DNA of 61,050 nucleotides from Bartonella koehlerae C-29. Lineage in GTDB: Bacteria > Pseudomonadota > Alphaproteobacteria > Rhizobiales > Rhizobiaceae. Every line of letters begins with the position of its first letter. Within the stretch, counting starts at the first letter, position 1. Made by a program: the position numbers and the translations under genes. Positions 4,985-52,401 of this stretch are shown here, in pieces. The stretch lies in contig NZ_KL407334.1 in the NCBI RefSeq assembly GCF_000706625.1, positions 1,601,316-1,662,365 on the forward strand. The letters are read 5' to 3'. The notes beneath the pieces were generated by a model. It ran no database searches, had not been told where the DNA came from, and saw nothing but the letters and a program-made list of their open reading frames with translations.

Positions 4985-6118
4985 TCAAATCACGTAGAAT
5001 GGCAAAGGCTCAAAACCATTAAATGCAACAGATGCGTAAGTCGCCGTATAAGCACCAGTTCCATGAATTAACAACTCATCTCCTACTGTGAGGGATAAAG
5101 GCAACAGATAAGGTGTTTTTTCATAGAGAACATCCGCCGAATCACAGGTTGGTCCTGCTAAAATACAAGGCTCCATTGCCTTATCATCATGAGGTGTCTC
5201 AATGGGATAGCGAATAGCTTCATCCATAGTCTCGGTAAGACCGTTAAATTTCCCAACATCTAGATAAACCCATCGGACATTATCATTGTCTGCTTTTTTG
5301 GATATAAGAACAACCTCTGTACGAATAACACCAGCGTTGCCAACCATCCCGCGCCCTGGCTCAATGATCGTTTCAGGAATACGATTGCCAAAATATTTTT
5401 TTAATGAATCAAAGACAACTGTGCCATAAGCTTGTGTTGTAGGAACATCTTCCAAATAACGGGTTGGAAAACCACCCCCCATATTAACTAATTTTAACGA
5501 AATTCCTTCATGCTCCAAGTTTCGAAAAACCGTAGCTGCATCTGACAAAGCGCGATCCCACGCGTCAAGATCTGTCTGCTGAGACCCAACATGAAAAGAA
5601 ACACCATACGCTTGCAAACCCAATTGATGTGCGCGACGCAATACATCAACCGCCATAGCAGGAACACAACCAAACTTACGTGACAATGGCCACTCTGCAC
5701 CCCTTCCATCCGTAAGAACTCGACAAAACACGCGAACTCCTGGAGCAGCCCGAGCAATCTTTTCCACTTCTTCAATACAATCAACCGCATAAAGCGAAAT
5801 ACCCAAGGCATATGCCCGTGCAATATCACGCTCTTTTTTAATAGTATTACCAAAAGAAATACGATCAGAGGTTGCTCCTGCTTTTAAAGCCATTTCAATT
5901 TCCGCAATAGAAGCAGCATCAAAAGAAGATCCTAAAGAAACAAGCAAACTTAAAATTTCAGGAGCTGGATTCGCCTTTATCGCATAAAAGATACGGGACT
6001 GCGGAAGAGCTTTTTCAAAATTTAAATAATTTTCACGAACAACATCAAGGTCAACAATTAAGCAGGGACCTTCAGAAAGATGTTTTGCAAGAAAATCGCG
6101 AATACGTTGCGTCGCCAT
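4985..6118 (-). CDS. odc: Ornithine/lysine decarboxylase, PLP fold type III
   Basis: A 377-residue eukaryotic-type (alanine-racemase-fold) decarboxylase. PLP would form a Schiff base with Lys48 in 'FYAIKANPAP'. 'EPGRGMVGNAG' is the phosphate-binding region, and Cys325 in 'GPTCDSADVL' is the catalytic cysteine contributed across the dimer. The size and the short C-terminus fit the alphaproteobacterial ornithine or dual lysine/ornithine decarboxylases that make putrescine for polyamines. A Shine-Dalgarno GGGAG lies 9 nt before the ATG. A promoter about 430 nt upstream leaves room for the speF-type leader RNA, so expression is probably leader-controlled. Ornithine versus lysine preference cannot be settled here. 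Confidence 0.93.
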   Translation of the reverse strand: MATQRIRDFLAKHLSEGPCLIVDLDVVRENYLNFEKALPQSRIFYAIKANPAPEILSLLVSLGSSFDAASIAEIEMALKAGATSDRISFGNTIKKERDIARAYALGISLYAVDCIEEVEKIARAAPGVRVFCRVLTDGRGAEWPLSRKFGCVPAMAVDVLRRAHQLGLQAYGVSFHVGSQQTDLDAWDRALSDAATVFRNLEHEGISLKLVNMGGGFPTRYLEDVPTTQAYGTVVFDSLKKYFGNRIPETIIEPGRGMVGNAGVIRTEVVLISKKADNDNVRWVYLDVGKFNGLTETMDEAIRYPIETPHDDKAMEPCILAGPTCDSADVLYEKTPYLLPLSLTVGDELLIHGTGAYTATYASVAFNGFEPLPFYVI

Positions 6119-40012: not shown

Positions 40013-40589
40013 AGAAAAGCATCAGCAATAACAATCGTTGCAGATAAAAACAATCACTCGGCCTCCGAAAGATGATTGAGCAACAAAATCCCCTTCCTCT
40101 CTCAAGAAAAACCAAACGCCTCAAACAAGAAAAGACCTTTAAAATATCTGAGCTATTTACCTTTGAATATTGCTGTCTTCCCTCCCAGATGGGTGAAAGC
40201 ATCCCTCCCTTAAGAGGCTATAAAATAACACCCAACCCCTACATAAACTTGTGCTATGCTACAGACTTTCATAAAAGCACTATCCCCTAAAAACTTCTGA
40301 AAATCGTGTCTTTACCATTGGTAATATCCCTATACATAATATCAGAGGAATGAAACTCTGTATTGTTTCTTTAAATTTTTTGATAATTTAAAAGAAAATC
40401 TGATCATACTTGAAAAAACTGAATCAAAAATGGCGTAAAATTTCTTTCTAAAAAAACCTTGAATCAACGGAAAACATCATTTTAATCATAACCCTTGTTT
40501 TATGCAAAATCCTAGTATGTAGTTTTTCAAGCTTTCTGCTTATCCCCTCTTTCTCTTTTCAGCACTCTCATTGAGAAATCAATATATTG
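40013..40589. other. Gene-free stretch
   Basis: No credible gene, RNA or hairpin between the WD40 pseudogene and integrase relic E. Confidence 0.4.
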
Positions 40590-40912
40590 ATTTACAAAGA
40601 TAATTCAGAATTATTCAACTTGAATATAAAACCCGAATATCGTAAGATTCTCTCCTCTCAAACCCTCTCATAGTGAATCACTCAAAACCATTCGTTTGCA
40701 CATCACAAGTGGGATGAACATGTGAATAAAAACTCTTCAGAAAAAGGAGAGAAAATGTTTCTCATGAACCGTCTCAAGTGCCGAGGGTTATCGCAACATT
40801 TTGAGCTGGCAAAGAGAATGATAGTGCCGGTTTATACCTTTATAAGCGTAAAGAGGGTGGTGAGTGGCTTTAATACCTTCTTACGCTACCGTAGTCATGA
40901 AGATAATGTATA
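40590..40912 (+). pseudogene. Integrase relic E: leader and start of the Arm-binding domain
   Basis: The leader copy is very close to relic A ('ATCGTAAGATTCTCTCCTCT', TCAAACCCTCTCATAGTGAAT, CACATCACAAGTGGGAT) and ends AAAGGAGAGAAAATG at 40754. It then reads 'MFLMNRLKCRGLSQHFELAK', equivalent to the integrase N-terminus of relic B before its first frame break, and fades after 'YKRKEGGEWL'-like text near 40880. It is followed by nothing integrase-like. Confidence 0.72.
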
Positions 40913-41572
40913 GAGATCTACCTGTTTCAAAAGGCACATTGGCATTTATAACGTGCAAAAAATCATAACCTTTAAAATATAGTAAAGCACATTTTTAAAA
41001 TATTTCCGTCACTATTTTACCTCAAACACCCTTCTCCTTTCTTTAAAGTATCAGTATTTCTTAAATAAAGATCCAAAGAAATATCTTATAAAAGAAGAAA
41101 GTAGAATGGCGCATTGACCGTCTATAAAAATTAGCACATTTTGTACTTTTATAGTACTTTTATAAAAGAAAAATTAAAACAAACCATAAACAATAAGCTC
41201 ACAACGAAAACTCATGAGTTTACACCAAAACTGGTAAAGAGAGAGTCAAAAAAGAACAGGAAAGCTCCCTAAGAAACAATTCTGATCACTTATCTTGACA
41301 TAAAAAAGATCAAAACAAACAACCTTTTACAACATTACACAATGAGCATCACGCATACAATCTTGCAAGATGCATAAAACCAAAATGGAATTGCTAATCC
41401 CATGTCATCATTATAAATGATAAAAATCTTTAAAAGACCTATTGTAGCGTAGAAGAAACCATACAATTACTAAACGTTTTCAATCATAAACTAAAGAAAT
41501 CACATAATGTGGGTTCTTTCATCAATAAACAGAGAAGCATTTAGATAAAGTAATAGAGATTTGAAGAAATTA
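40913..41572. other. Gene-free AT-rich stretch downstream of autotransporter 1
   Basis: No gene. The segment 41425-41530 has weak similarity to 35740-35850. The terminator of autotransporter 1 begins at 41573. Confidence 0.4.
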
Positions 41573-41600
41573 AAAGGCAGCACATTGTGCTGCCTTTTAT
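41573..41600 (-). terminator. Terminator of autotransporter 1
   Basis: AAAAGGCAGCACA and TGTGCTGCCTTTT form a long near-perfect stem with a short loop, starting about 25 bp beyond the stop. It is almost identical to the terminator of autotransporter 2 at 45446-45473. Confidence 0.85.
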
Positions 41601-41625
41601 ATCATAATACATATTGTCTCATATC

Positions 41626-44600
41626 CTAGAACTGATACCGCAGTCCACCCGAAAAACTAGTTCCAGAAAAACCCGCCTTAGTAAGCTTCTGCTGATAAAC
41701 CAAATCACCATGAAGAGAAAACTTTGAAGATAACCGGGCATTAAAGCCTAATCCTGCTTCTACAGAAGAACCAAAGCCACCCAACTGAAAAGCATCTTTA
41801 AAATAAACAAATTGTTTTTCCCCAAAACTATGTGCAAGATGAAGCTTGCCATAAAAGGAAACAACACGCGCCTCTTCGGTTGCAGCTAGGGCCTTTGTTA
41901 AACGTCCACCAACACGCATCGTCCATTGATCCAATTTCCCCAGTGCAATCTCAAAATCGTCAATATCACGGGCCTTATCAAACTGAATATGCTGATAAAT
42001 AGCTTGAACCTGCGGATCAAAAATAAAACCTTCCTCTCCTACCACAAACGCTTTACCAGTAGTCACTGAAACACTGAGAGGCTTGCCCTTTAATGTTGCC
42101 GTCTTGCCACGGGCAAGAGTATGGACATCACCCTTAAACACACCATAGGATAAAAGTCCATCTACATAAAAGCCCGCATCATGCTGCAAAGTGCTATATG
42201 CTGTTACAGACCATTTATCAAAGACACTTTTTTGACTTTGTTCTACATCTAAAGGTTGCAGAGAAAGTTTTCCATAAGTCCCCATAACTCCAAAAGAGGT
42301 ATTACTATGTTCACCCTCGATTGTTTTCAGTAAAATACCAGCTTCGATTGCATTATAGCCAAGCTCACCCCCATAACCATATTCCAACGCAGAAAGATTT
42401 GAGGCATAACGATGACTTCCACCGTAACTGCGCACAAAAAAGGCAGGATTTTCCTCATTTTGCAAGTATCCACCAGAAACAGTGCGTAAAACTTCTAACC
42501 GCTTACCTTGATTGCTAACATCTATCAAACCAGCATGAAACAGGGCATTTGGCAAAAGCAAATAGGTCGGAACTTGCGGAACAACTGCTTTAACTCCCGG
42601 TTCAAGACGAGGCGGCGGAGTTGGTTCCGGAAATGGTCCAGGAGAAGGGCCTAGCTCTGGACGAGGTCCTGGTTCAGGAATAGGTTTTGGAACAGGTCCA
42701 GGAGCCGGCGCTGGCCCAGGTTTATGATCATCAATATACCTATTTTCGAGGCGAAAATCCCAAAATTTTCCCTCGCCTTTAACTAATCTTTGATTGGAAT
42801 GCGCCTCTCCTAAATCAGATTCTGGACCATAAGCATAAAGCATATACTGATAAGGTGAGTGCTGCGCAGTGACATAACCGCCATCTAACTGAAAAGAATT
42901 TTTATTTGCCTTTCCAGAAACCTGAATGATTGAAATCCCTTGTTCATTTCCACCACTACCCGTAGATTCCCCTGAACTTCCTGGCATACCGCGTACATGG
43001 ACTACCGTTGTACCAGAAACATCACCATGTATCAAAACACGATCAGTCTTTTGCTTTTCACGATCTCCTCCCTCATTCAGATATGTGTTAAGGTAAATAT
43101 TCCCCCCATCCTGCACCTTATAAACTGTGTTCATCCCATTCCCAATATTGAGTGTTTGATAATGATAAGTCGAAGCAGATTTCAGTTTTTTAAAATTAAC
43201 GGAACTATCATTCATAAGAAGCAGAAATGAAACAGATGAATGATTTGTAAAATCAGATTCACGCGAATCCGTCTCTTGTGTTTGTTTTAAAATCCATGTC
43301 GAACCAGCACCTAAATAGAGCTCAGCGGTAGAACGATCATCAACAGAGGCTTTCCCTTCAAGGGTAGAAGCACTGGCTAAAACTTTCACCAAGGCCCCCC
43401 TCTCAGCCCTTAACAATGACCGCCCTGAAAGGGTACTTTGCATTAAATTAACAACACCATAAGTACTATCGATACTATAAAGAGCCACACTGTCTGGAAC
43501 AGAAAACATTGTCTGTCTCAAATTAATAGCTTCCAATCTAGGTAGCTTTTTTTCCTCCTCTAGATTTTCTCTATTCTCGAATCTTTCGCTCAGCTTTTCT
43601 CCCCGAAAATATATACCGTATGATGCCTCTCCATTCACTGTAACAGAAGCAGATGTGAGATTAACCTCAGTCACAGAAATTTTCGGCCTAGAATCTTCAG
43701 CTCCAAACTGCAAAATGGAATTTGAAGTACGAACTGTGTTTTCTGATAAGATTCCATGAACATTCATAGCATTAATAGTCGTACCATCTAAATTAATAGG
43801 ACCACCTAAATCCGTATGCAAAACCGCATAATTATTTGAATTTTTTTCTTTACTATTTCCAGTAATCTTAACAGCATCGAGATTAATCTTTCCACCTAGT
43901 GTCGAAGAAACCCCATGACTATTCATGAAATCAACTGATCCGCCTGCCATCCAAACTTCTGAACGGTCATAACTCAAAAGGCCCGCCTTTCCATTACCCG
44001 TCTTAATTTCTGTATCCTCTAAAACAACAAACGAGTTCCCTATTGCCTCAACTGCCTTATGATTTGCCTCAATAGTCCCCTGACGTACCTCAATTATCCC
44101 ATCACTAGCATAAAAGGCTACATGTACATTCTTGAGAGTTGGATTTGTCAAAACAATCTTGCCATCCTCTGATACAGAGACACCACGTGTAAAAGGTTTA
44201 TCATAAACTTGACTGTGAACAGTTACATTCTCCCCATCAACTCTACTATCTCTCCCCTTTACTGTTATCGCAGTATTAGAGGAAAATTTAGCATTCTCAT
44301 GCGTAATCTCATAATACTGATACCCAATTTTTTCCGTTCCGCAATCATTGCACATATAATATAATCCATCATATATCATAAGCCTGCTCGGCTGATCACC
44401 AACCTTTTCATCTTTAACATAAACATATCTGCTAACACTTTTATCCCCACCCTCTCCACTAAGAATGTGTCCAGCGTTATTCCCACTAAGATGTCCACTA
44501 GAATTGCTACTACCAGATCCGCTATCACCTCTACTAGCACCAAGATTATCACTGCTAAGACCATTAAGGCTACTAATTCTCCTCCCAGAAAGGTTAAGAG

Positions 44601-44796
44601 TGGACATATAGGAGACACCATTTTGCACAGGGGTAACACTGATCTCATAAAACTGTCCAGGATATATAGAGCTAACACTAATCTTATAATCATCACCCTG
44701 AGCACTAGCACCAATTCCTATTCCATTTTGTAGGAAAGAAAGAATAGCGGTCGTGACAGTACATAAACACACATGATTTCTAAACACTTTAATCAT
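41626..44796 (-). CDS. Autotransporter 1, type Va secretion protein with pectin-lyase-like passenger
   Basis: 1056 residues. A signal peptide (about 1-33, 'CLCTVTTAILSFLQNGIGIG') leads to a passenger of short beta-strand repeats. These include 'EVRQGTIEANHKAVEAIGNS', 'INLDAVKITGNSKE' and 'INLDGTTINAMNVHGILSEN', as in right-handed beta-helix adhesins. A module ending 'KFWDFRLENRYI' closes it near residue 685. A Pro-rich linker (about 690-732, repeats of PGP, EPGP) joins it to the autotransporter barrel, about 738-1056, from 'QVPTYLLLPNALFHAGLIDV' to the C-terminal 'GTSFSGGLRYQF' with terminal Phe. GAGGGAAC precedes the ATG. The promoter lies ~210 nt upstream, giving a long leader. It resembles Bartonella inducible or CAMP-like autotransporters; which one cannot be decided here. 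Confidence 0.93.
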   Translation of the reverse strand: MIKVFRNHVCLCTVTTAILSFLQNGIGIGASAQGDDYKISVSSIYPGQFYEISVTPVQNGVSYMSTLNLSGRRISSLNGLSSDNLGASRGDSGSGSSNSSGHLSGNNAGHILSGEGGDKSVSRYVYVKDEKVGDQPSRLMIYDGLYYMCNDCGTEKIGYQYYEITHENAKFSSNTAITVKGRDSRVDGENVTVHSQVYDKPFTRGVSVSEDGKIVLTNPTLKNVHVAFYASDGIIEVRQGTIEANHKAVEAIGNSFVVLEDTEIKTGNGKAGLLSYDRSEVWMAGGSVDFMNSHGVSSTLGGKINLDAVKITGNSKEKNSNNYAVLHTDLGGPINLDGTTINAMNVHGILSENTVRTSNSILQFGAEDSRPKISVTEVNLTSASVTVNGEASYGIYFRGEKLSERFENRENLEEEKKLPRLEAINLRQTMFSVPDSVALYSIDSTYGVVNLMQSTLSGRSLLRAERGALVKVLASASTLEGKASVDDRSTAELYLGAGSTWILKQTQETDSRESDFTNHSSVSFLLLMNDSSVNFKKLKSASTYHYQTLNIGNGMNTVYKVQDGGNIYLNTYLNEGGDREKQKTDRVLIHGDVSGTTVVHVRGMPGSSGESTGSGGNEQGISIIQVSGKANKNSFQLDGGYVTAQHSPYQYMLYAYGPESDLGEAHSNQRLVKGEGKFWDFRLENRYIDDHKPGPAPAPGPVPKPIPEPGPRPELGPSPGPFPEPTPPPRLEPGVKAVVPQVPTYLLLPNALFHAGLIDVSNQGKRLEVLRTVSGGYLQNEENPAFFVRSYGGSHRYASNLSALEYGYGGELGYNAIEAGILLKTIEGEHSNTSFGVMGTYGKLSLQPLDVEQSQKSVFDKWSVTAYSTLQHDAGFYVDGLLSYGVFKGDVHTLARGKTATLKGKPLSVSVTTGKAFVVGEEGFIFDPQVQAIYQHIQFDKARDIDDFEIALGKLDQWTMRVGGRLTKALAATEEARVVSFYGKLHLAHSFGEKQFVYFKDAFQLGGFGSSVEAGLGFNARLSSKFSLHGDLVYQQKLTKAGFSGTSFSGGLRYQF

Positions 44797-45004
44797 AGTT
44801 CCCTCGAAACTTTTCTTCCCCTCTCATTAAAAATAAAAGCATTCGTAAAAACATCCCGCTTACTCCTTCAACACTCTCACCCAAAGGATGCATCTACGGC
44901 TCATTTGACTGGCGCAACGCATTATTCAAATGAATTAAACGGAAGACTTCCTTGCAACACAAAAACTACTAATAAGAGAATAATTTATATACGCAATCTT
45001 TAGG
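44797..45004 (-). promoter_or_regulatory. ~200-nt 5' leader of autotransporter 1
   Basis: Between the putative start point and the ATG. No gene. Such a long leader could hold post-transcriptional control, but I see no known motif. Confidence 0.4.
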
Positions 45005-45033
45005 TGTATAATACATTCCGTATTTGGTGTAAA
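45005..45033 (-). promoter_or_regulatory. Promoter of autotransporter 1
   Basis: Minus strand: -35 TTTACA (45028-45033), 17-nt spacer ending GAATGTAT, -10 TATACA (45005-45010). It closely matches the element at 33928-33956. Confidence 0.6.
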
Positions 45034-45445
45034 GCAAAAATAAAATCATTAGGTGCAATTAATTGCATAAACAATCTATCGTTGTGAAACTAAAAAGAAT
45101 TACCAAAAAATATGAAATGAAAAAGATTGCTAAAATCAATAAAAAGACAAACTCTAGAAAACCTAGCTTAAGTAACTATAGGGCAGAGACATCAAATACC
45201 ATATAAAGTAGGATATTACACACCCACACAGGAACCTATTCAAAATGTCCTCGAATAAAATCAGACACTTCGGCATCGTATCATGACTAGCAAAGATCTT
45301 AAGAAAATTCACTCATTGTAGCATGAAAAGAAAATGCTACGGTCTTTAGCTGCTTTTACGTGAAAAACAAAAAAATATTATGATTTTTTGATGAATATCA
45401 AAAGAATAAGAATCTTTTAAGAAATCAACGTAAGTTTTATAAATC
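45034..45445. other. Gene-free segment between the two autotransporters
   Basis: No coding sequence. A short stretch near 45270-45360 resembles sequence downstream of autotransporter 1 and at 35740. Confidence 0.35.
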
Positions 45446-45473
45446 AAAAAGGCAGCACACTGTGCTGCCTCTT
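45446..45473 (-). terminator. Terminator of autotransporter 2
   Basis: AAAGGCAGCACA and TGTGCTGCCTCTT form a strong hairpin about 29 bp beyond the stop. It is nearly the same sequence as 41573-41600. Confidence 0.85.
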
Positions 45474-45501
45474 ATATCAAAGTATATATTTGCTCGGTAG
45501 C

Positions 45502-48500
45502 CTAAAACTGATAACGCAGTCCCCCAGAAAAACTCGCTCCTGAAAAGCCAGCCTTCGTAAGCTTCTGCTGATAAACAACATCACCGTGAAGTACAAACTT
45601 TGGAGACAACCGAGCATTAAAGCCTAATCCAGCTTCTAAGGAAGAACCAAAGGCACCTAACCGGAAAGCATCTTTGAAATGCACAGATTGTTTTTTTCTA
45701 AAACCATGGACAAGATAAAGCTTACCATAGAAGGAAGTAGCGTTTATCCCCTCAGATCCTGTCGGAGCCTTGCTTAAACGTCCACCAACACGTGCAACCC
45801 ATTGATCAAGCTTTCCCATCTCAATATCAAAGTTATCGATATCACGGGCCTTATCAAACTGGAGATTTTGATAAACAACCTGAACTTGCGGATCAACAAC
45901 AAAACCTTCATATCCTGTTGCAAATGACTGACCACCTGTCAATGAAACACTAAGAGGTTTGCTCTTTAATGTTGCTGTCTTGCCACGGGCAAGAGTGACC
46001 ACATCTCCTTTGAACAGACCATAAGATAAAAGTCCATCTACATAAAAACCCGCATCATGCTGCAAAGTGCTATATGCTGTTACAGACCATTTATCAAAGG
46101 CACTTTCCTCACTATGTTTAACATTTTTAGGTTGTAGAGAAAGCTTTCCATAAGAACCCATAACCCCAAAAGATACCACATTATCTGCACTCTCGAGTGT
46201 TTTTAGCAAAATGCCAGCCTTAACAGCGTTATAACGAAGATATCCCCCATAGCCATATTCAAGTGCAGACAGATCTGAGGCATAACGGTAATGACCACCA
46301 TAACCACGCAAGAACAAAGCAGGATTTTCATGAATTTCCAACATTCCACCGGCATTCATCCGCAATGTCTCCAACTGCTTATTTTGATTGCCAATATCCA
46401 TCAAACCAACATGGAATAAGCTATTGGGTAAGAGAAGATAAGTCGGTACTTGCGGAACAACAGACCTGACAATGCGTTCAGGGAGAATAAATCCATCAGA
46501 TCGTTCAGGGAAATCAAATCCATCAGTAGGAACTGTAGGCTTAACATATTGATTCTCTAGACGAAAATCCCAAAAATCTCCACCGTCCTTCATAAATTTC
46601 TGTTCAATATTCTCCTGTTTTGCAGTTACCTCTGGACCATAAGAACGAAGAACATATTTGTAAGGCGAATTCTCTAATGCAACATAATTACCATCCAATT
46701 GGAAAGAATCTTTCTCCGCCTGTCCATAAACCTGAATAATTGAAACACTGTGAGCAATCCGGCTGTTATCGTTACCTTCTCCTACAGTACCCGAAACACC
46801 TCGTACCTGTACTCTTGTTTTACCAGAAACATCACCATGAATGACAAATCTATCAGTTACTTGCTTATTACTAGGATCATTGGGGTTTAAACGTGCATTG
46901 AGATAAATTGTAACATCGCCCTCCGCCTCATAAACCTTGCCATTCCCAGTTCCAATGTGGACAGTCTGATACAGATCGTCAGATTCCGGAGGCACAAAAT
47001 CAATAACACTATTTACAAGTCTTATAGAAGAAACACACGAATCCACACACTCTGAATCCGGAGTTACAAAATTTCTCTGTACACCTCTTTTTAGAATCCA
47101 GTCTGATTTATTGATCAAGTCCAATTTGGCATAAGAACCTTTATCAACGCGCGCACCACCTTCAATAATAGAGTTATCAACTGAAATCGATATATTAGAA
47201 TTATTCTCAGCACTCAACAACAAACCACCAGAAAGAATTGTGTCCTGTTCTAATAAAATCTGACCACCAGAATTATTACCATAAATAGCTGTACCATTCG
47301 GGACTTCAAATCTAGTTTTTTTCAATGAAACCACCCCTGTTATACCTATAGGTGTCTTCTCGTTTTGAAATACAGTACTTCGTTTAACAACACTTACTTC
47401 CTCAACAGTCCTTTCTTTTCTAGATAATTCTGCAACAGATTCCTCTAGAACTTTATTTCGATTCTGCTGATTATCTTCTCTTCGTTTGCCCCCATCAAAG
47501 TATATGCCATATAACCCATCACCCTCCACTTTAATACTAGCGAATTCGATATGAGCACGATTCAGAGAAGGACGAACATCAGAAGATCTTTTTCTTCTGG
47601 AAGTAACAGTATCAAAAGCACCGTCTTCAACGGAAACATCACTATTCCTCAACCACAAACCATTAGCATCAGTAAAAACATAACCATTAGCGAATTCAAT
47701 AGAACCACGATCATTCAACAAGAAAGCCGCACGCCCAAAGATCTCTGTTGTATCCGACTGCTCTTTCTCTTTTACCGCAATAATATTAACGTTGTCTAAT
47801 TGAACACTTCCACCCGATTCCGACCTAACTGCCACTCCCCCTGTAAGAGTAATCGACCCAGAATTCATGGTTATTTCACCAGCATTACTAGCAAGACCAG
47901 CTACAGCCAAATCCCCCATTACACTAATTTCCGTATTACTTAAATTAATAAACGACTCGGAACCTGCCAAAGCCCCTACATAAAGAGTTCTGACCGTCCC
48001 ATCGATCATCTCAATTTTCCCACCTCTTTGCGCTTCAAGCCCAATCATAGAAGATTGTACTTCGGAGTCTTGTTGCAAAATAATCTCTGCCCCATTTTCC
48101 GCAAGCACAGCACTTGCAACCTGTAATTTAGTAAAATCAACATTATCTTCATCAAAAGAATCCGCACCAATAATGGTAGCATCATTTAGATTAATAATCG
48201 TATTCTGACCTTCTGCATACATAGGATGCTGAGTTGCATCACTTGCCTTCAGTGTAAGACCTGTCACTTCATGTGTTCGACCATCATTGCATGAATAAGC
48301 AGTTTGCGAATTCCCTACACCATTATTTTCTATATCACTACACGCACCAGAAACAGTTCCCCTATCAACATTATTAAGCAGAAAAACACGTCCAACAGGT
48401 TCACCAGGTTTTGCGAAAACCGGCTGTGCGGAGACAGTAGGCGCTAAAGCAACTGAATTTATAGGTGCTGGCACCTTAGACACAAAAAAAACAGAACTCT

Positions 48501-51500
48501 GAGGTGATTCAGAAGATTGAACAGCTGATATAGGAATCCTAGATTGATTCAAACTAGACGAATCAAGAGAAGGTCTAGACACTACAGATTCAGATTTTTC
48601 AATCTCTGCAGATTTTCCAAGTTCTGCAGAATTATCAGCCTCAGCGGAAGCAGTAGAAGTCTCAACGGAGGAAAGATTAGAAACTACAAAAACCTCATCT
48701 CCTGGTTCAGATCTCCCAAGTGAAGAAGACTGAGTATTTACTACAGATATAGAATTATCAGATACATCACTCACACTAGAACTACATTGAAGTTTATCAG
48801 TAGGAGATGATAAATTTAAAAAACGCCCATCAGGACAAGGCCGCCTGAAAGTCCCATCACGTTTTTGTATGATAGCCCCCGCATTAATAACGGTATTTTT
48901 AGGATCGTATAATTCTTCAGGTATTACCTTCACTACAACAGGTTCAGATGTCTTAGATCCCCTAATATTATCAGACATATAATCCGCTCGATTACACTTC
49001 GCATTACTAGTAGGAGATGATAAGGCAAGCATACTTATAGAATCACCCCGAGAACACACCCTATAAAACGTGCCGTTACTCCTTTGGAAGACATAATCCT
49101 TATCCCTAGGATATTCGAAAGGTCTGGATTCGTACAATACCGCAGGCACTACAAGCACTGCATTAGGTTTAGATCTCTCAAATTCATTAGACACCACAGG
49201 CACAGAACTCTGAGGTAAAGCATTAGTTTCAGATCTTCCAAGTATAGAAGATACTACAGACACAGAATCTTCAGAAGGATCTGCAATAGGAGGCATCACA
49301 AACTCAGCAGCATTGGATTCACTCCTAGCAACGGATTCACTCCTAGCAACACTAGCATCAGGTTTAACAGTAGAAGCAAGTAAAACACGCGATCTAGGCT
49401 TAAAAATAGGTTGAAAATTAGTCGCAGTAGTATACCCAGAAACAAGAGGTATAACATATTGGTTTTCTAAACGAAAATCCCAAACTTCACTACTCTTAAT
49501 CAATTTCCTATCGAAATACTGCATCTTTGGAGGTGTAGTTGGACCATAAGCACGAAGAACATACTGATAAGGCAATCCTTCTCGTGTAATATAATCACCG
49601 TTCAGCTTAAAAGAATCCTTCTCTGCATCCCCAAAAACCTGAATCATTGAAATACTATGAGGCACATCTTGACTTTGTTGAGTACTATCATCTGAAGTGT
49701 CTGTTACATATACCGTTGTTTTTCCATCAACATTACCATGAATCAGCAATCTATCAGATACTTGAGAACTCTCCGTATCACTAGGCATTAGATTAGCATT
49801 AAAGTAAATTTTAGAATCACCAGAAGCACTGTAAACTGTCCCTTCCCCATTTCCAATACGAAGGGTTCGATACTCAATTCCTCCAACTTTATGTGTATTC
49901 TCATTTTTTAAAGAAAATCTAATATTACTATTAGTAAGTTTTATAGACGAAATACATGAATCCACGCAACCTATATCTGAATTTTCCAAACGATTATATA
50001 AATTCTCTGTTAAGTACCACTCCGATCCCCCAGATAAAAAAAGCTTCGCATGAGAATCTTTATCGGTGCGAGCAGCCCCCATAATTATAGAATCATCAAC
50101 AAAAACAGACAGATTTGAACCAGCCTCAGCTCTTAAGAATAAACCACCAGAAAGAGTTGATTCATCTTTTACAACGACGTAACCATCCAAATTATCACCA
50201 TAAACAGCCACACCATCAGGAACTCTGAAAGCAGTATTTTTTAAAAGAACTGCATGCAATCTATCTTCATTACCTCCTCCTTGCTGATTCTCTAAAACCT
50301 GTTGTTCACCCTGAACTGAATTTGATGTATCCGCTATTTCATCCTTATTAAAATATATACCATAAGAATTACCATTCACTTTAATAGTTGAATTTTGAAT
50401 ATCAGAAACTGTTAAGTTAAAATTCTTAGGTTCTTCTTCTTCCTCTTCCTCTTCATCTTCCTCATCATAATCTTCAAGAATTTCTTTACTCTTTAAAGCT
50501 TGCCCTATAGAATTTGCAACTTCAATATGTTTAGATTCACTACTATCATAGATAACGTCATCATAGACAGCATCATATTTCGATCCAATCGGAATTACCT
50601 CAGCAAAAACCCCACTATCGAAAACACTACCACTAATGCCATACTGATTGATATCCACTCCCTTTTGGTCAGAAACTTCAAAGATATTACCGTTAAAGTC
50701 ATCACTTACCCACAATGCAACATTATTAAAGCCTTCAAATTTTCCATTATTAAAGGAAACACTGCCCCCACGTGATAATAATCCAATACTTATTTCCTTA
50801 GAATCACGGCCCTCTTCTCCACCAGCCTGAACAGTAACTCCATCTAATTGAACAACTCCTCCTTTTTCTGATATAATTCCTATTCCACCCTCTTCTACAG
50901 TAATTATTCCAGACTTCATCCCTATAACAGATGGTCCAGAGCTCAATAGACCAATTGCTGTAGCATTAATATCTACATCCCCTAAAAAGATCTCTCCACC
51001 CTCGCTAGCGACAGCACCTACATAAACATCCTCAATAGCCCCCTCTGTCATATAGATCTTCCCAAACCCTTTAGCTTGAAGACCAATAAAAAAGCCTTGA
51101 ATATTTGAGTTATTTAAGTCAACTTTTGTAATTTTACCTTCTTTAACACCTTCTACTCGTACGGCAACATACCCCACTTCGTTATTATCATAATCATCAT
51201 CAGAATTAATGAAAGCTAAATTAACAATATTTTTCAAATTAACTTGAGACAAACTATCAGTAAGATGTTCTCTGATACCTTTAATGGATACATTATCCAA
51301 ATTAACAACTATATCTTGATTCAAGTCAGCAACACCTTGTATCTTATCTGCAAACGCATCTCCCTTTATAGATACGGCAGTCTCCCCCTCCTCCGCCATA
51401 ATCGTCCCCCCTGTTATTTTGTATACTCCACCTCGATCACAAGAAATAGGCCTATATATTCGCTCACCACTATTGAAAAAATCTGCTAACCCAGCTCTTG

Positions 51501-52401
51501 TTAAAACATCTACAGCTCCTACACCTTTACCAACTGGTGCACTTACACTGACACCAGGCATTACACCACCTGGTAAAATCTCTGACATAGTATCTAGTAC
51601 ACTATTCGGTATGCCATCAACACCACCTTGCGCAGCTCCTTTCAAATCATCTCGCACTAACAGCATACCATCTGGCACTTCTCCTAAACCACCATTTCGC
51701 GCTATCGCAGGCACCGCCATTCCTGCCCCTGGAATACCGCCCGATACCATCCTATCACTTGATAAAGTATCCAGCGTAGTAGCCAGCTCTCCATTTGCAA
51801 AACTAGGCACAGCAGATCTTGCTGCTCTTGCTGTTCTACTTGGAACACCCAAACTAATAGATGGCATACCACCTGGCACACCTGCTAAACCATCTGATAC
51901 ACCTGCTACACCACCTGGCACACCTGCTACACCACCTGGCACACCTGCTACACCACCTGGCACACCTGCTACACCACCTGGCACACCTACTCGATTCCGC
52001 ACATCACCCCGTATAGTACCAGGAACAGCGGGAGCATTTTCATTACTAGAATTACAAGCATAAATAGATTGATTCAAAACAGGGGTAATTCCAACAGATT
52101 TGGAACTCATAACACCACTTACTCTATATCCCCCTCTAGAATTAATTACAGGTTCACTAGATATAGGTAAAGAAGGACTTACAGACCCAGATACGGATAC
52201 GGAATCAGAGAGCTCAGGTACAGGATAGGCAGATTGCCCTCCAAAAGGTAAGGACAATGATGAGAATGAAGGAAGAGAGAATGAGGGAAAAGAGAACGTC
52301 CACCAACCAGCTCCCATAGAAACATCTGCACTTTGTAAAAAGAAGAGAGCACTCGTTGTAAGAGCACACAAACGGGTACGATTTTTCAATACATTAATCA
52401 T
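45502..52401 (-). CDS. Autotransporter 2, giant protein with two serial passenger modules
   Basis: 2299 residues. A signal peptide (about 1-31) leads to a Ser/Pro/Phe-rich segment and the heptad repeat VAGVPGG (about 140-175). Passenger module 1 (about 320-975) has beta-helix strands, an acidic run of Asp/Glu near 645, and a closing 'SEVWDFRLENQYV'. A Ser-rich linker (about 980-1440) contains two related Cys blocks ('GTFYRVCSRGDS', 'GTFRRPCPDGRF'). Passenger module 2 (about 1450-1950) closes with 'GDFWDFRLENQYV'. One autotransporter barrel (about 1985-2299, 'QVPTYLLLPNSLFHVGLMDI' to GGLRYQF) ends the protein. Both modules share blocks such as 'AVYGDNLDGYVVV' and 'AIYGNNSGGQILL'. It looks like a tandem fusion in which the first barrel was lost. 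There is no frameshift along 6.9 kb. Confidence 0.93.
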   Translation of the reverse strand: MINVLKNRTRLCALTTSALFFLQSADVSMGAGWWTFSFPSFSLPSFSSLSLPFGGQSAYPVPELSDSVSVSGSVSPSLPISSEPVINSRGGYRVSGVMSSKSVGITPVLNQSIYACNSSNENAPAVPGTIRGDVRNRVGVPGGVAGVPGGVAGVPGGVAGVPGGVAGVSDGLAGVPGGMPSISLGVPSRTARAARSAVPSFANGELATTLDTLSSDRMVSGGIPGAGMAVPAIARNGGLGEVPDGMLLVRDDLKGAAQGGVDGIPNSVLDTMSEILPGGVMPGVSVSAPVGKGVGAVDVLTRAGLADFFNSGERIYRPISCDRGGVYKITGGTIMAEEGETAVSIKGDAFADKIQGVADLNQDIVVNLDNVSIKGIREHLTDSLSQVNLKNIVNLAFINSDDDYDNNEVGYVAVRVEGVKEGKITKVDLNNSNIQGFFIGLQAKGFGKIYMTEGAIEDVYVGAVASEGGEIFLGDVDINATAIGLLSSGPSVIGMKSGIITVEEGGIGIISEKGGVVQLDGVTVQAGGEEGRDSKEISIGLLSRGGSVSFNNGKFEGFNNVALWVSDDFNGNIFEVSDQKGVDINQYGISGSVFDSGVFAEVIPIGSKYDAVYDDVIYDSSESKHIEVANSIGQALKSKEILEDYDEEDEEEEEEEEPKNFNLTVSDIQNSTIKVNGNSYGIYFNKDEIADTSNSVQGEQQVLENQQGGGNEDRLHAVLLKNTAFRVPDGVAVYGDNLDGYVVVKDESTLSGGLFLRAEAGSNLSVFVDDSIIMGAARTDKDSHAKLFLSGGSEWYLTENLYNRLENSDIGCVDSCISSIKLTNSNIRFSLKNENTHKVGGIEYRTLRIGNGEGTVYSASGDSKIYFNANLMPSDTESSQVSDRLLIHGNVDGKTTVYVTDTSDDSTQQSQDVPHSISMIQVFGDAEKDSFKLNGDYITREGLPYQYVLRAYGPTTPPKMQYFDRKLIKSSEVWDFRLENQYVIPLVSGYTTATNFQPIFKPRSRVLLASTVKPDASVARSESVARSESNAAEFVMPPIADPSEDSVSVVSSILGRSETNALPQSSVPVVSNEFERSKPNAVLVVPAVLYESRPFEYPRDKDYVFQRSNGTFYRVCSRGDSISMLALSSPTSNAKCNRADYMSDNIRGSKTSEPVVVKVIPEELYDPKNTVINAGAIIQKRDGTFRRPCPDGRFLNLSSPTDKLQCSSSVSDVSDNSISVVNTQSSSLGRSEPGDEVFVVSNLSSVETSTASAEADNSAELGKSAEIEKSESVVSRPSLDSSSLNQSRIPISAVQSSESPQSSVFFVSKVPAPINSVALAPTVSAQPVFAKPGEPVGRVFLLNNVDRGTVSGACSDIENNGVGNSQTAYSCNDGRTHEVTGLTLKASDATQHPMYAEGQNTIINLNDATIIGADSFDEDNVDFTKLQVASAVLAENGAEIILQQDSEVQSSMIGLEAQRGGKIEMIDGTVRTLYVGALAGSESFINLSNTEISVMGDLAVAGLASNAGEITMNSGSITLTGGVAVRSESGGSVQLDNVNIIAVKEKEQSDTTEIFGRAAFLLNDRGSIEFANGYVFTDANGLWLRNSDVSVEDGAFDTVTSRRKRSSDVRPSLNRAHIEFASIKVEGDGLYGIYFDGGKRREDNQQNRNKVLEESVAELSRKERTVEEVSVVKRSTVFQNEKTPIGITGVVSLKKTRFEVPNGTAIYGNNSGGQILLEQDTILSGGLLLSAENNSNISISVDNSIIEGGARVDKGSYAKLDLINKSDWILKRGVQRNFVTPDSECVDSCVSSIRLVNSVIDFVPPESDDLYQTVHIGTGNGKVYEAEGDVTIYLNARLNPNDPSNKQVTDRFVIHGDVSGKTRVQVRGVSGTVGEGNDNSRIAHSVSIIQVYGQAEKDSFQLDGNYVALENSPYKYVLRSYGPEVTAKQENIEQKFMKDGGDFWDFRLENQYVKPTVPTDGFDFPERSDGFILPERIVRSVVPQVPTYLLLPNSLFHVGLMDIGNQNKQLETLRMNAGGMLEIHENPALFLRGYGGHYRYASDLSALEYGYGGYLRYNAVKAGILLKTLESADNVVSFGVMGSYGKLSLQPKNVKHSEESAFDKWSVTAYSTLQHDAGFYVDGLLSYGLFKGDVVTLARGKTATLKSKPLSVSLTGGQSFATGYEGFVVDPQVQVVYQNLQFDKARDIDNFDIEMGKLDQWVARVGGRLSKAPTGSEGINATSFYGKLYLVHGFRKKQSVHFKDAFRLGAFGSSLEAGLGFNARLSPKFVLHGDVVYQQKLTKAGFSGASFSGGLRYQF
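51880..51984 (-). repeat. 21-bp tandem repeat encoding VAGVPGG
   Basis: Four perfect copies of ACCTGCTACACCACCTGGCAC (plus strand, 51901-51984) and one diverged copy (51880-51900). Each unit is exactly seven codons, so a change in copy number alters length without shifting frame. It lies in the exposed N-terminal part of autotransporter 2. Confidence 0.95.

What the first reader, a model, noticed from the sequence alone, without database searches (positions are those of the whole stretch)
45502..52401. Giant autotransporter built from two serial passenger modules on one barrel
Each half carries the same set of blocks in the same order (beta-helix strands, 'AVYGDNLDGY' versus 'AIYGNNSGGQ', an 'SGG' block, and a closing 'WDFRLENQYV'). 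In autotransporter 1 next door, the closing block leads straight to the linker and barrel. Here the first closing block (near residue 974) is followed by a ~460-residue Ser-rich linker and a second full passenger. The simplest reading is a fusion of two tandem autotransporter genes with loss of the first barrel. The 6.9-kb frame is intact, so it is probably expressed. I know of no standard description of such a two-passenger layout.
Basis: partly seen in the sequence, partly recalled or inferred. Interest (0 to 1): 0.7.

Follow-up and report, generated by a model that had tools for sequence, protein, structure and literature searches.

The report
Two-headed autotransporter on one barrel
This gene, very likely from a Bartonella, encodes one giant protein with two related modules in a row on a single membrane anchor, a layout found in many Bartonella species; the far module is hypervariable and the near one conserved, so it likely works as a changing head on a steady stalk.

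Summary
The 2,299-residue frame (window 45502-52401, minus strand) has two passenger modules, each a predicted beta-helix closed by an autochaperone (AC) domain, and one barrel. The modules are 42% identical over 352 columns (E 2e-70). It is no local fusion: 95 of 103 homologues have two AC domains, among them B. henselae, B. quintana and B. taylorii proteins. AC trees put both modules together, apart from the other autotransporters (100/100); a Cys-xxx-Cys mark agrees. So the passenger was likely duplicated once, long ago; no barrel remnant is seen. The distal module is hypervariable (median identity: helix 27%, AC 45%), the proximal part conserved (59%, 69%; barrel 81%). I read it as a variable head on a conserved stalk, probably of the CFA type (CFA papers not held). 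The closing block WDFRLENQYV looks like a recombination seam: a second contig of the same assembly joins this giant's exact barrel to a different single passenger there, and some relatives show tracts with like borders. In 398 sampled genomes of the phylum, only this frame held two AC_1 matches.

The parts
45502..52401 (-). giant two-module autotransporter, 2,299 aa
   Evidence: frame; domains
52309..52401 (-). N-terminal hydrophobic leader, residues 1-31, similar to that of AT1 (signal peptide inferred, no program run)
51502..52308 (-). low-complexity N-region, residues 32-300, with VPGGVAG heptapeptide repeats
50257..51489 (-). module 1 (distal) predicted beta-helix, residues 305-715
   Evidence: AlphaFold2; fold matches
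49450..50256 (-). autochaperone domain 1 (AC1), residues 716-984, CVDSC at 812-816
49462..49482 (-). closing block WDFRLEN of module 1, residues 974-980
48232..49449 (-). Ser-rich linker, residues 985-1390
47335..48231 (-). module 2 (proximal) predicted beta-helix, residues 1391-1689
   Evidence: AlphaFold2; fold matches
46540..47334 (-). autochaperone domain 2 (AC2), residues 1690-1954, CVDSC at 1785-1789
46552..46581 (-). closing block of module 2 (WDFRLEN 46552-46572) and the joint where contig C2 departs from the window (46581, residue 1940)
45505..46506 (-). single C-terminal barrel, residues 1966-2299
41404..46581 (.). 5,178-bp stretch (giant barrel plus AT1) also present, 100% identical, on contig C2
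41626..44796 (-). AT1, single-passenger neighbour, 1,056 aa; second gene of the array

Best explanation
This gene encodes one autotransporter with two related passenger modules in series on a single barrel, an arrangement that likely arose once by duplication of the passenger in an ancestor of these Bartonella and that probably works as a conserved, membrane-proximal stalk displaying a hypervariable distal head. Shown: two AC domains, one barrel, the kinship of the modules, the spread of the layout, and the gradient of variation from the far end (least alike) to the barrel (most alike). Predicted: both modules fold as pertactin-like beta-helices. Inferred: during export the barrel-side AC2 would seed folding of module 2, the disordered linker would follow, and AC1 would seed a second, separate round of folding for module 1. 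Inferred: the closing block WDFRLENQYV and the DNA after it serve as a homologous-recombination seam, so that passengers, module 1 or barrels are exchanged or duplicated inside the tandem array. The probable role is that of the CFA locus, a surface antigen needed for erythrocyte infection in B. taylorii according to a review passage (PMC10288214).
For: Module kinship 42% over 352 columns, E 2e-70. 95 of 103 homologues have two AC domains, 89 with one full barrel and 6 with the barrel cut short or missing. Of 36 same-genus relatives searched, 29 had a match; I read arrays of 23 of those 29: a full double frame in 15 genomes (16 frames), a split frame in 2, a module-1-type single in 1, none in 5. 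27 of 53 named loci hold a full double frame (L097 and L099 are the same sequence). Tree of 69 AC domains: modules 1 and 2, with three p3-like rows, stand apart from all 34 other rows at 100/100, module 1 one clade at 100/99. CxxxC in 19 of 26 module-1, 23 of 26 module-2 and 4 of 86 other AC rows, those four being a giant without module 2 and pieces of split giants; in the 90 doubles, 72 AC1 and 81 AC2. Median identity among 90 doubles: helix1 27% (86 rows), AC1 45%, helix2 59%, AC2 69%, barrel 81%; within eight named species, 22 pairs: helix1 28%, AC1 41%, linker 20%, helix2 58%, AC2 91%, barrel 97%. Predicted folds. Seam: contig C2 is 100% identical over 5,178 bp and departs at residue 1940; its AC groups with third- and fourth-gene relatives while its barrel is the giant's. 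Two giants in G013 share helix2, AC2 and barrel (3,366 bp, 99.1%) with unlike module 1; G024 shares a barrel tract (1,046 bp, 97.6%). In G019 a module-1-type AC runs through WDFRLENQYV to the barrel.
Against: No expression, surface or function data. The homologue set leans towards long, similar, intact proteins (length limits, capped candidates). Module 2 rows are not one clade (two changes); in the larger quick tree module 1 needs two changes and module 2 four, with CB60 and B30 module 1 falling with module 2. The p3-like AC rows that group with module 2 lack CxxxC, so their origin is unsure; 7 of 26 module-1 and 3 of 26 module-2 rows also lack it. Within some species helix1 varies little (B. 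quintana 57-62%, B. doshiae 78%, one B. taylorii pair 78%). High variation could reflect weak constraint; no selection test was run. Not all shared tracts end at the seam: those in G010 (253 bp), G013 (1,283 bp) and G020 (970 bp) have other borders, and the window's own two genes share none at 90% or more. Whether C2 is a tandem copy, a variant in the culture or an assembly by-product cannot be settled without reads. The link to CFA rests on review passages and a B. quintana annotation, not on a comparison with Cfa.
Confidence: 0.72

Rival explanations
1. One reading: two different tandem autotransporter genes fused and the first barrel was lost.
For: The array is tandem, module borders match those of single autotransporters, and each module follows a low-complexity stretch, as the start of a whole gene would.
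Against: Both AC domains are closer to each other than to the neighbour types sampled (100/100); CxxxC is shared by most modules and absent from the 82 remaining single-AC rows; one barrel only in each complete double.
Confidence: 0.13
2. Both modules are independent adhesins of equal standing (a bivalent adhesin), and the variation of module 1 reflects relaxed constraint rather than a head exposed to immunity.
For: Both modules are predicted to be complete passengers that match the same known folds, pertactin and Vag8.
Against: Within species AC2 and barrel stay at 91% and 97% while helix1 falls to 28%, yet two AC domains are kept in 95 of the 103 homologues found, a set that favours intact genes.
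Confidence: 0.2
3. Assembly artefact: the giant frame or contig C2 is a false join.
For: C2's ends overlap by 95 bp and it shares 5,178 bp with the window, as an unresolved repeat would. The giant itself was not listed at 100% in the protein collection.
Against: The double layout recurs in 89 other complete proteins. C2's 978-aa protein is recorded on two contigs, the longest 68,709 bp, and AT1 on three.
Confidence: 0.04

Closest known systems
Bartonella CFA (CAMP-like factor autotransporter) locus
   Same: Hypervariable autotransporter locus in Bartonella; review passages describe a hypervariable antigen needed for erythrocyte infection (PMC10288214; PMC10936683). Adjacent B. quintana genes BQ10280/BQ10290 are annotated as CAMP-like factor autotransporters (PMC3595295 passages), and B. 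quintana and B. henselae proteins are in the giant's family.
   Different: The two primary papers were not held, so I could not compare the sequence or see whether a two-module layout was described. No passage I saw mentions it.
Pertactin and Vag8 of Bordetella (monomeric T5aSS autotransporters)
   Different: They have one helix and one AC per barrel (recalled); this protein has two in series with a linker of about 406 residues.
Antigen 43 of E. coli
   Same: Among the top Foldseek matches of both models, with pertactin, at low TM-scores.
   Different: One passenger module (recalled); no sequence match in the PDB (0 at E 0.01).
Inducible Bartonella autotransporters (iba) and autoA/autoB
   Same: Tandem, fast-evolving Bartonella autotransporter genes with copy-number change (PMC3610622 passages; PMC2697382 passages).
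   Different: iba genes are described inside the flagellar cluster; the six neighbours tested here are not flagellar. I could not map the array onto these names.

Membership tests
Monomeric autotransporter (T5aSS) | C-terminal barrel PF03797 at the end of the protein | tested here: met
   74.9 bits, cut-off 26; TIGR01414
Monomeric autotransporter (T5aSS) | beta-helical passenger closed by an autochaperone domain | tested here: met
   AC_1 61.5 bits, cut-off 27.1; helices are predictions
Monomeric autotransporter (T5aSS) | N-terminal Sec signal peptide | not tested
   hydrophobic leader seen in the sequence; no signal-peptide program run
Monomeric autotransporter (T5aSS) | one passenger module per barrel (usual plan, recalled; not a strict criterion) | tested here: not met
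   two AC and helix modules, one barrel; hence a variant
Bartonella CFA | sequence orthology to B. henselae Cfa or B. taylorii CFA | not tested
   reference sequences not compared, primary papers not held
Bartonella CFA | hypervariable region between strains of a species | tested here: met
   22 within-species pairs from eight species; shown for the family, not for this species, and surface position is untested
Inducible Bartonella autotransporter (iba) | location inside the flagellar gene cluster (PMC3610622 passages) | tested here: inconclusive
   six neighbours are not flagellar, but this lineage may have lost its flagella (recalled)
Trimeric autotransporter adhesin (BadA/Vomp) | short YadA-type trimeric anchor | tested here: not met
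   (E up to 1) show a full PF03797 barrel and no trimeric anchor family

The most novel reading that the evidence does not exclude
A class of autotransporter that folds in two acts on one barrel: AC2 seeds a conserved stalk helix, a disordered linker passes, and a second autochaperone re-seeds a separate hypervariable head. Both modules end in one recurring closing block, which turns the tandem array into a natural store of interchangeable surface modules, caught in the act here by two contigs of one assembly that carry different passengers on the same barrel.
Probability: 0.35. Interest if true: 0.75.

Novelty: new variant of a known kind. Interest (0 to 1): 0.52.

Why it matters
It gives a concrete anatomy for a protein of a locus type known for hypervariability: which half varies, which half is constant, and where recombination seems to join them. 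That makes the source of the variation testable and says which part of the protein would be a steady target for detection or vaccination. It also poses a clean folding question, whether a second autochaperone restarts folding after a disordered linker.

Tried and rejected
Double-barrel fusions as intermediates: several relatives seemed to have two barrels in one open frame; reading the frames stop to stop showed separate genes, so I dropped the idea. Barrel remnant in the linker: the barrel profile (E 1e-5, domain E 1e-3) finds one barrel in each complete double; a remnant decayed beyond that is not excluded. Trimeric adhesin: no support. Sequence relatives in the PDB: 0 at E 0.01. First genome-contig scan with the whole giant found nothing; the second, with the module 2 alignment, gave 53 loci, from the best 80 of 95 matches. 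Contig C3 has no match with the window at E 1e-5. The stretch upstream of the C2 gene gave no match to relatives in the part of the output I printed (cut at 5,000 characters).

Searches for a printed two-module description: 'autochaperone', 'two passenger', 'autotransporter': 1 paper, on intimin; 'autotransporter', 'two autochaperone': 0; 'Bartonella', 'autotransporter', 'autochaperone': 8 listed, seen as a listing; for Bartonella autotransporters in general. PMC5767081, on autochaperone domains, was read only through a term search, which gave 0 hits for 'two AC', 'more than one', 'several AC', 'multiple AC' and 'duplicat'. All other papers were seen as passages or listings, none whole. This is no proof of absence, since the primary CFA papers are not held.

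Unexplained: the giant itself was not listed at 100% by the protein search, although AT1 and the C2 protein were.

Full report
What is there. The frame 45502-52401 (minus strand) is open from ATG to stop, 2,299 residues. Pfam finds one autotransporter barrel and the autochaperone family AC_1 in two stretches. My own profiles, built from this protein, AT1 and the contig C2 protein, place AC domains at 716-984 and 1690-1954 and the barrel at 1966-2299. The halves align at 42% identity over 352 columns, E 2e-70, and AT1 aligns with each half. The block WDFRLEN ends both modules, at 974-980 and 1944-1950.

How common it is. The window lies in a 1.75-Mb genome of three contigs. That it is a Bartonella is inferred: the close homologues carry that name, and the nearest module 2 is from B. 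henselae (82%). Of 103 homologous proteins, 95 have two AC domains (89 with one full barrel, 6 with the barrel cut short or missing), 5 have one (P0096-P0100, named B. schoenbuchensis, B. bovis and two strains WD) and 3 (Luteibacter, Dyella, one unnamed) have no full-length AC match to my profile. The search favours long proteins like the query, so this is no census. Of 36 same-genus relatives searched, 29 had a match and 7 none. I read arrays of 23 of the 29: a full double frame in 15 genomes (16 frames), a split one in 2, a module-1-type single in 1, none in 5. Of 53 named loci, 27 hold a full double frame, 3 fragmentary or overlapping frames (L101, L110, L111), 1 a single (L113), 2 only single-AC frames on short contigs (L114, L115), and 20 are another autotransporter gene of about 900 residues (L097 and L099 are the same sequence).

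Beyond the genus the layout looks rare in what was sampled. In 398 genomes drawn from the phylum, AC_1 gave 125 matches in 47 genomes, and only the window's giant frame held two (read from the listed frames). In 190 genomes of the class, six others gave one match each. A diverged second AC could be missed by this profile.

Where it came from. In a careful tree of a hand-picked 69 AC domains, modules 1 and 2, with three p3-like rows, are split from the 34 other rows by a branch with support 100/100; module 1 is one clade at 100/99, module 2 is not. A quick tree of all 138 rows also keeps the modules apart from the other genes (96), but there module 1 needs two changes and module 2 four. A CxxxC pair is in 19 of 26 module-1 rows, 23 of 26 module-2 rows and 4 of 86 other rows, and those four are a giant without module 2 and pieces of split giants; the p3-like rows lack it. 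This points to one old duplication of a passenger, within a gene or between sister copies, not to a fusion with a present neighbour. One barrel only is found in each complete double.

How it changes. Contig C2 of the same assembly (7,346 bp) is identical to window 41404-46581 over 5,178 bp, then departs at giant residue 1940, just before WDFRLENQYV. Beyond the joint it encodes a different single passenger, giving a 978-residue protein on the giant's own barrel. The first part of that passenger (C2 5800-7346 searched) is nowhere else in the genome apart from the 95-bp end repeat. Its AC groups with third- and fourth-gene relatives, while its barrel is the giant's. C2's last 95 bp repeat its start, which lies 222 bp past the AT1 stop. 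The simplest reading is an extra tandem unit, giant, AT1, C2 gene, AT1, produced by unequal recombination at the seam; a variant in the culture or an assembly by-product is not excluded. The 978-residue protein is recorded on two contigs, the longest 68,709 bp.

In relatives, (23 arrays, the window and C2; tracts of 250 bp or more at 90% or more) shows: two giants in G013 that share helix2, AC2 and barrel (3,366 bp, 99.1%) but not module 1; in G024 a barrel tract of 1,046 bp (97.6%) between the giant's second part and a p3-type gene; in G004 barrel tracts of 1,268 bp at 98.5 and 97.0%. Those of G024 and G004 end within about 40 bp of the barrel profile's start. Tracts in G010, G013 (1,283 bp) and G020 have other borders. 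In G019 module 2 is missing and a module-1-type AC runs through WDFRLENQYV to the barrel. Downstream of AT1 the window has the flank that follows the array in nine of the 23 relatives.

How it likely works. Inferred from the anatomy and from the C-to-N folding of autotransporter passengers (recalled): AC2 would seed module 2 next to the barrel, the linker would pass unfolded, and AC1 would seed module 1 as a second unit. The outcome would be a stalk and a head. Review passages state that a B. taylorii mutant without the cfa locus gave no bacteremia and that CFA has a hypervariable antigenic region (PMC10288214; PMC10936683), and adjacent B. quintana genes annotated as CAMP-like factor autotransporters rise at 28 C (PMC3595295 passages). 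I judge the giant to be of that kind, but the primary papers were not held, so orthology to Cfa is untested here.

Verdict. A new variant of a known kind: an autotransporter with two serial helix-plus-autochaperone modules, kept in many Bartonella species, with a variable far module and a steadier near one.

Noticed in passing
L009 (contig C2, 7,346 bp) against window 41404-46581: Second contig of the same assembly carries the giant's barrel and AT1 unchanged but another single passenger, and its two ends overlap by 95 bp.
   Followed up: yes
window 51868-51988: 21-bp in-frame tandem repeat (5.8 copies, VPGGVAG heptapeptides) in the giant's N-region; its length could change without a frame shift.
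   Followed up: no
window 45447-45473: Terminator-like stem of 12 pairs between the giant and AT1, so they may be transcribed apart (pattern match only).
   Followed up: no
window 40585-40860: Non-coding stretch similar to DNA between or behind autotransporter genes of relatives, perhaps a scar of lost genes.
   Followed up: partly
L059 and L060 (G013 array): Two giants in one array share module 2 and barrel almost exactly but have unlike module 1.
   Followed up: partly
L113 4357-7869 and L077 4357-7869: Giant that lacks module 2; the module-1-type AC leads straight to the barrel.
   Followed up: partly
P0090, P0091, P0093: Homologues of 3,568-3,745 residues with more than 2,000 residues ahead of AC1.
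   Followed up: no
residues 1116, 1136, 1189, 1206 of the giant (linker): Two short look-alike stretches, each with two Cys, in the Ser-rich linker.
   Followed up: no
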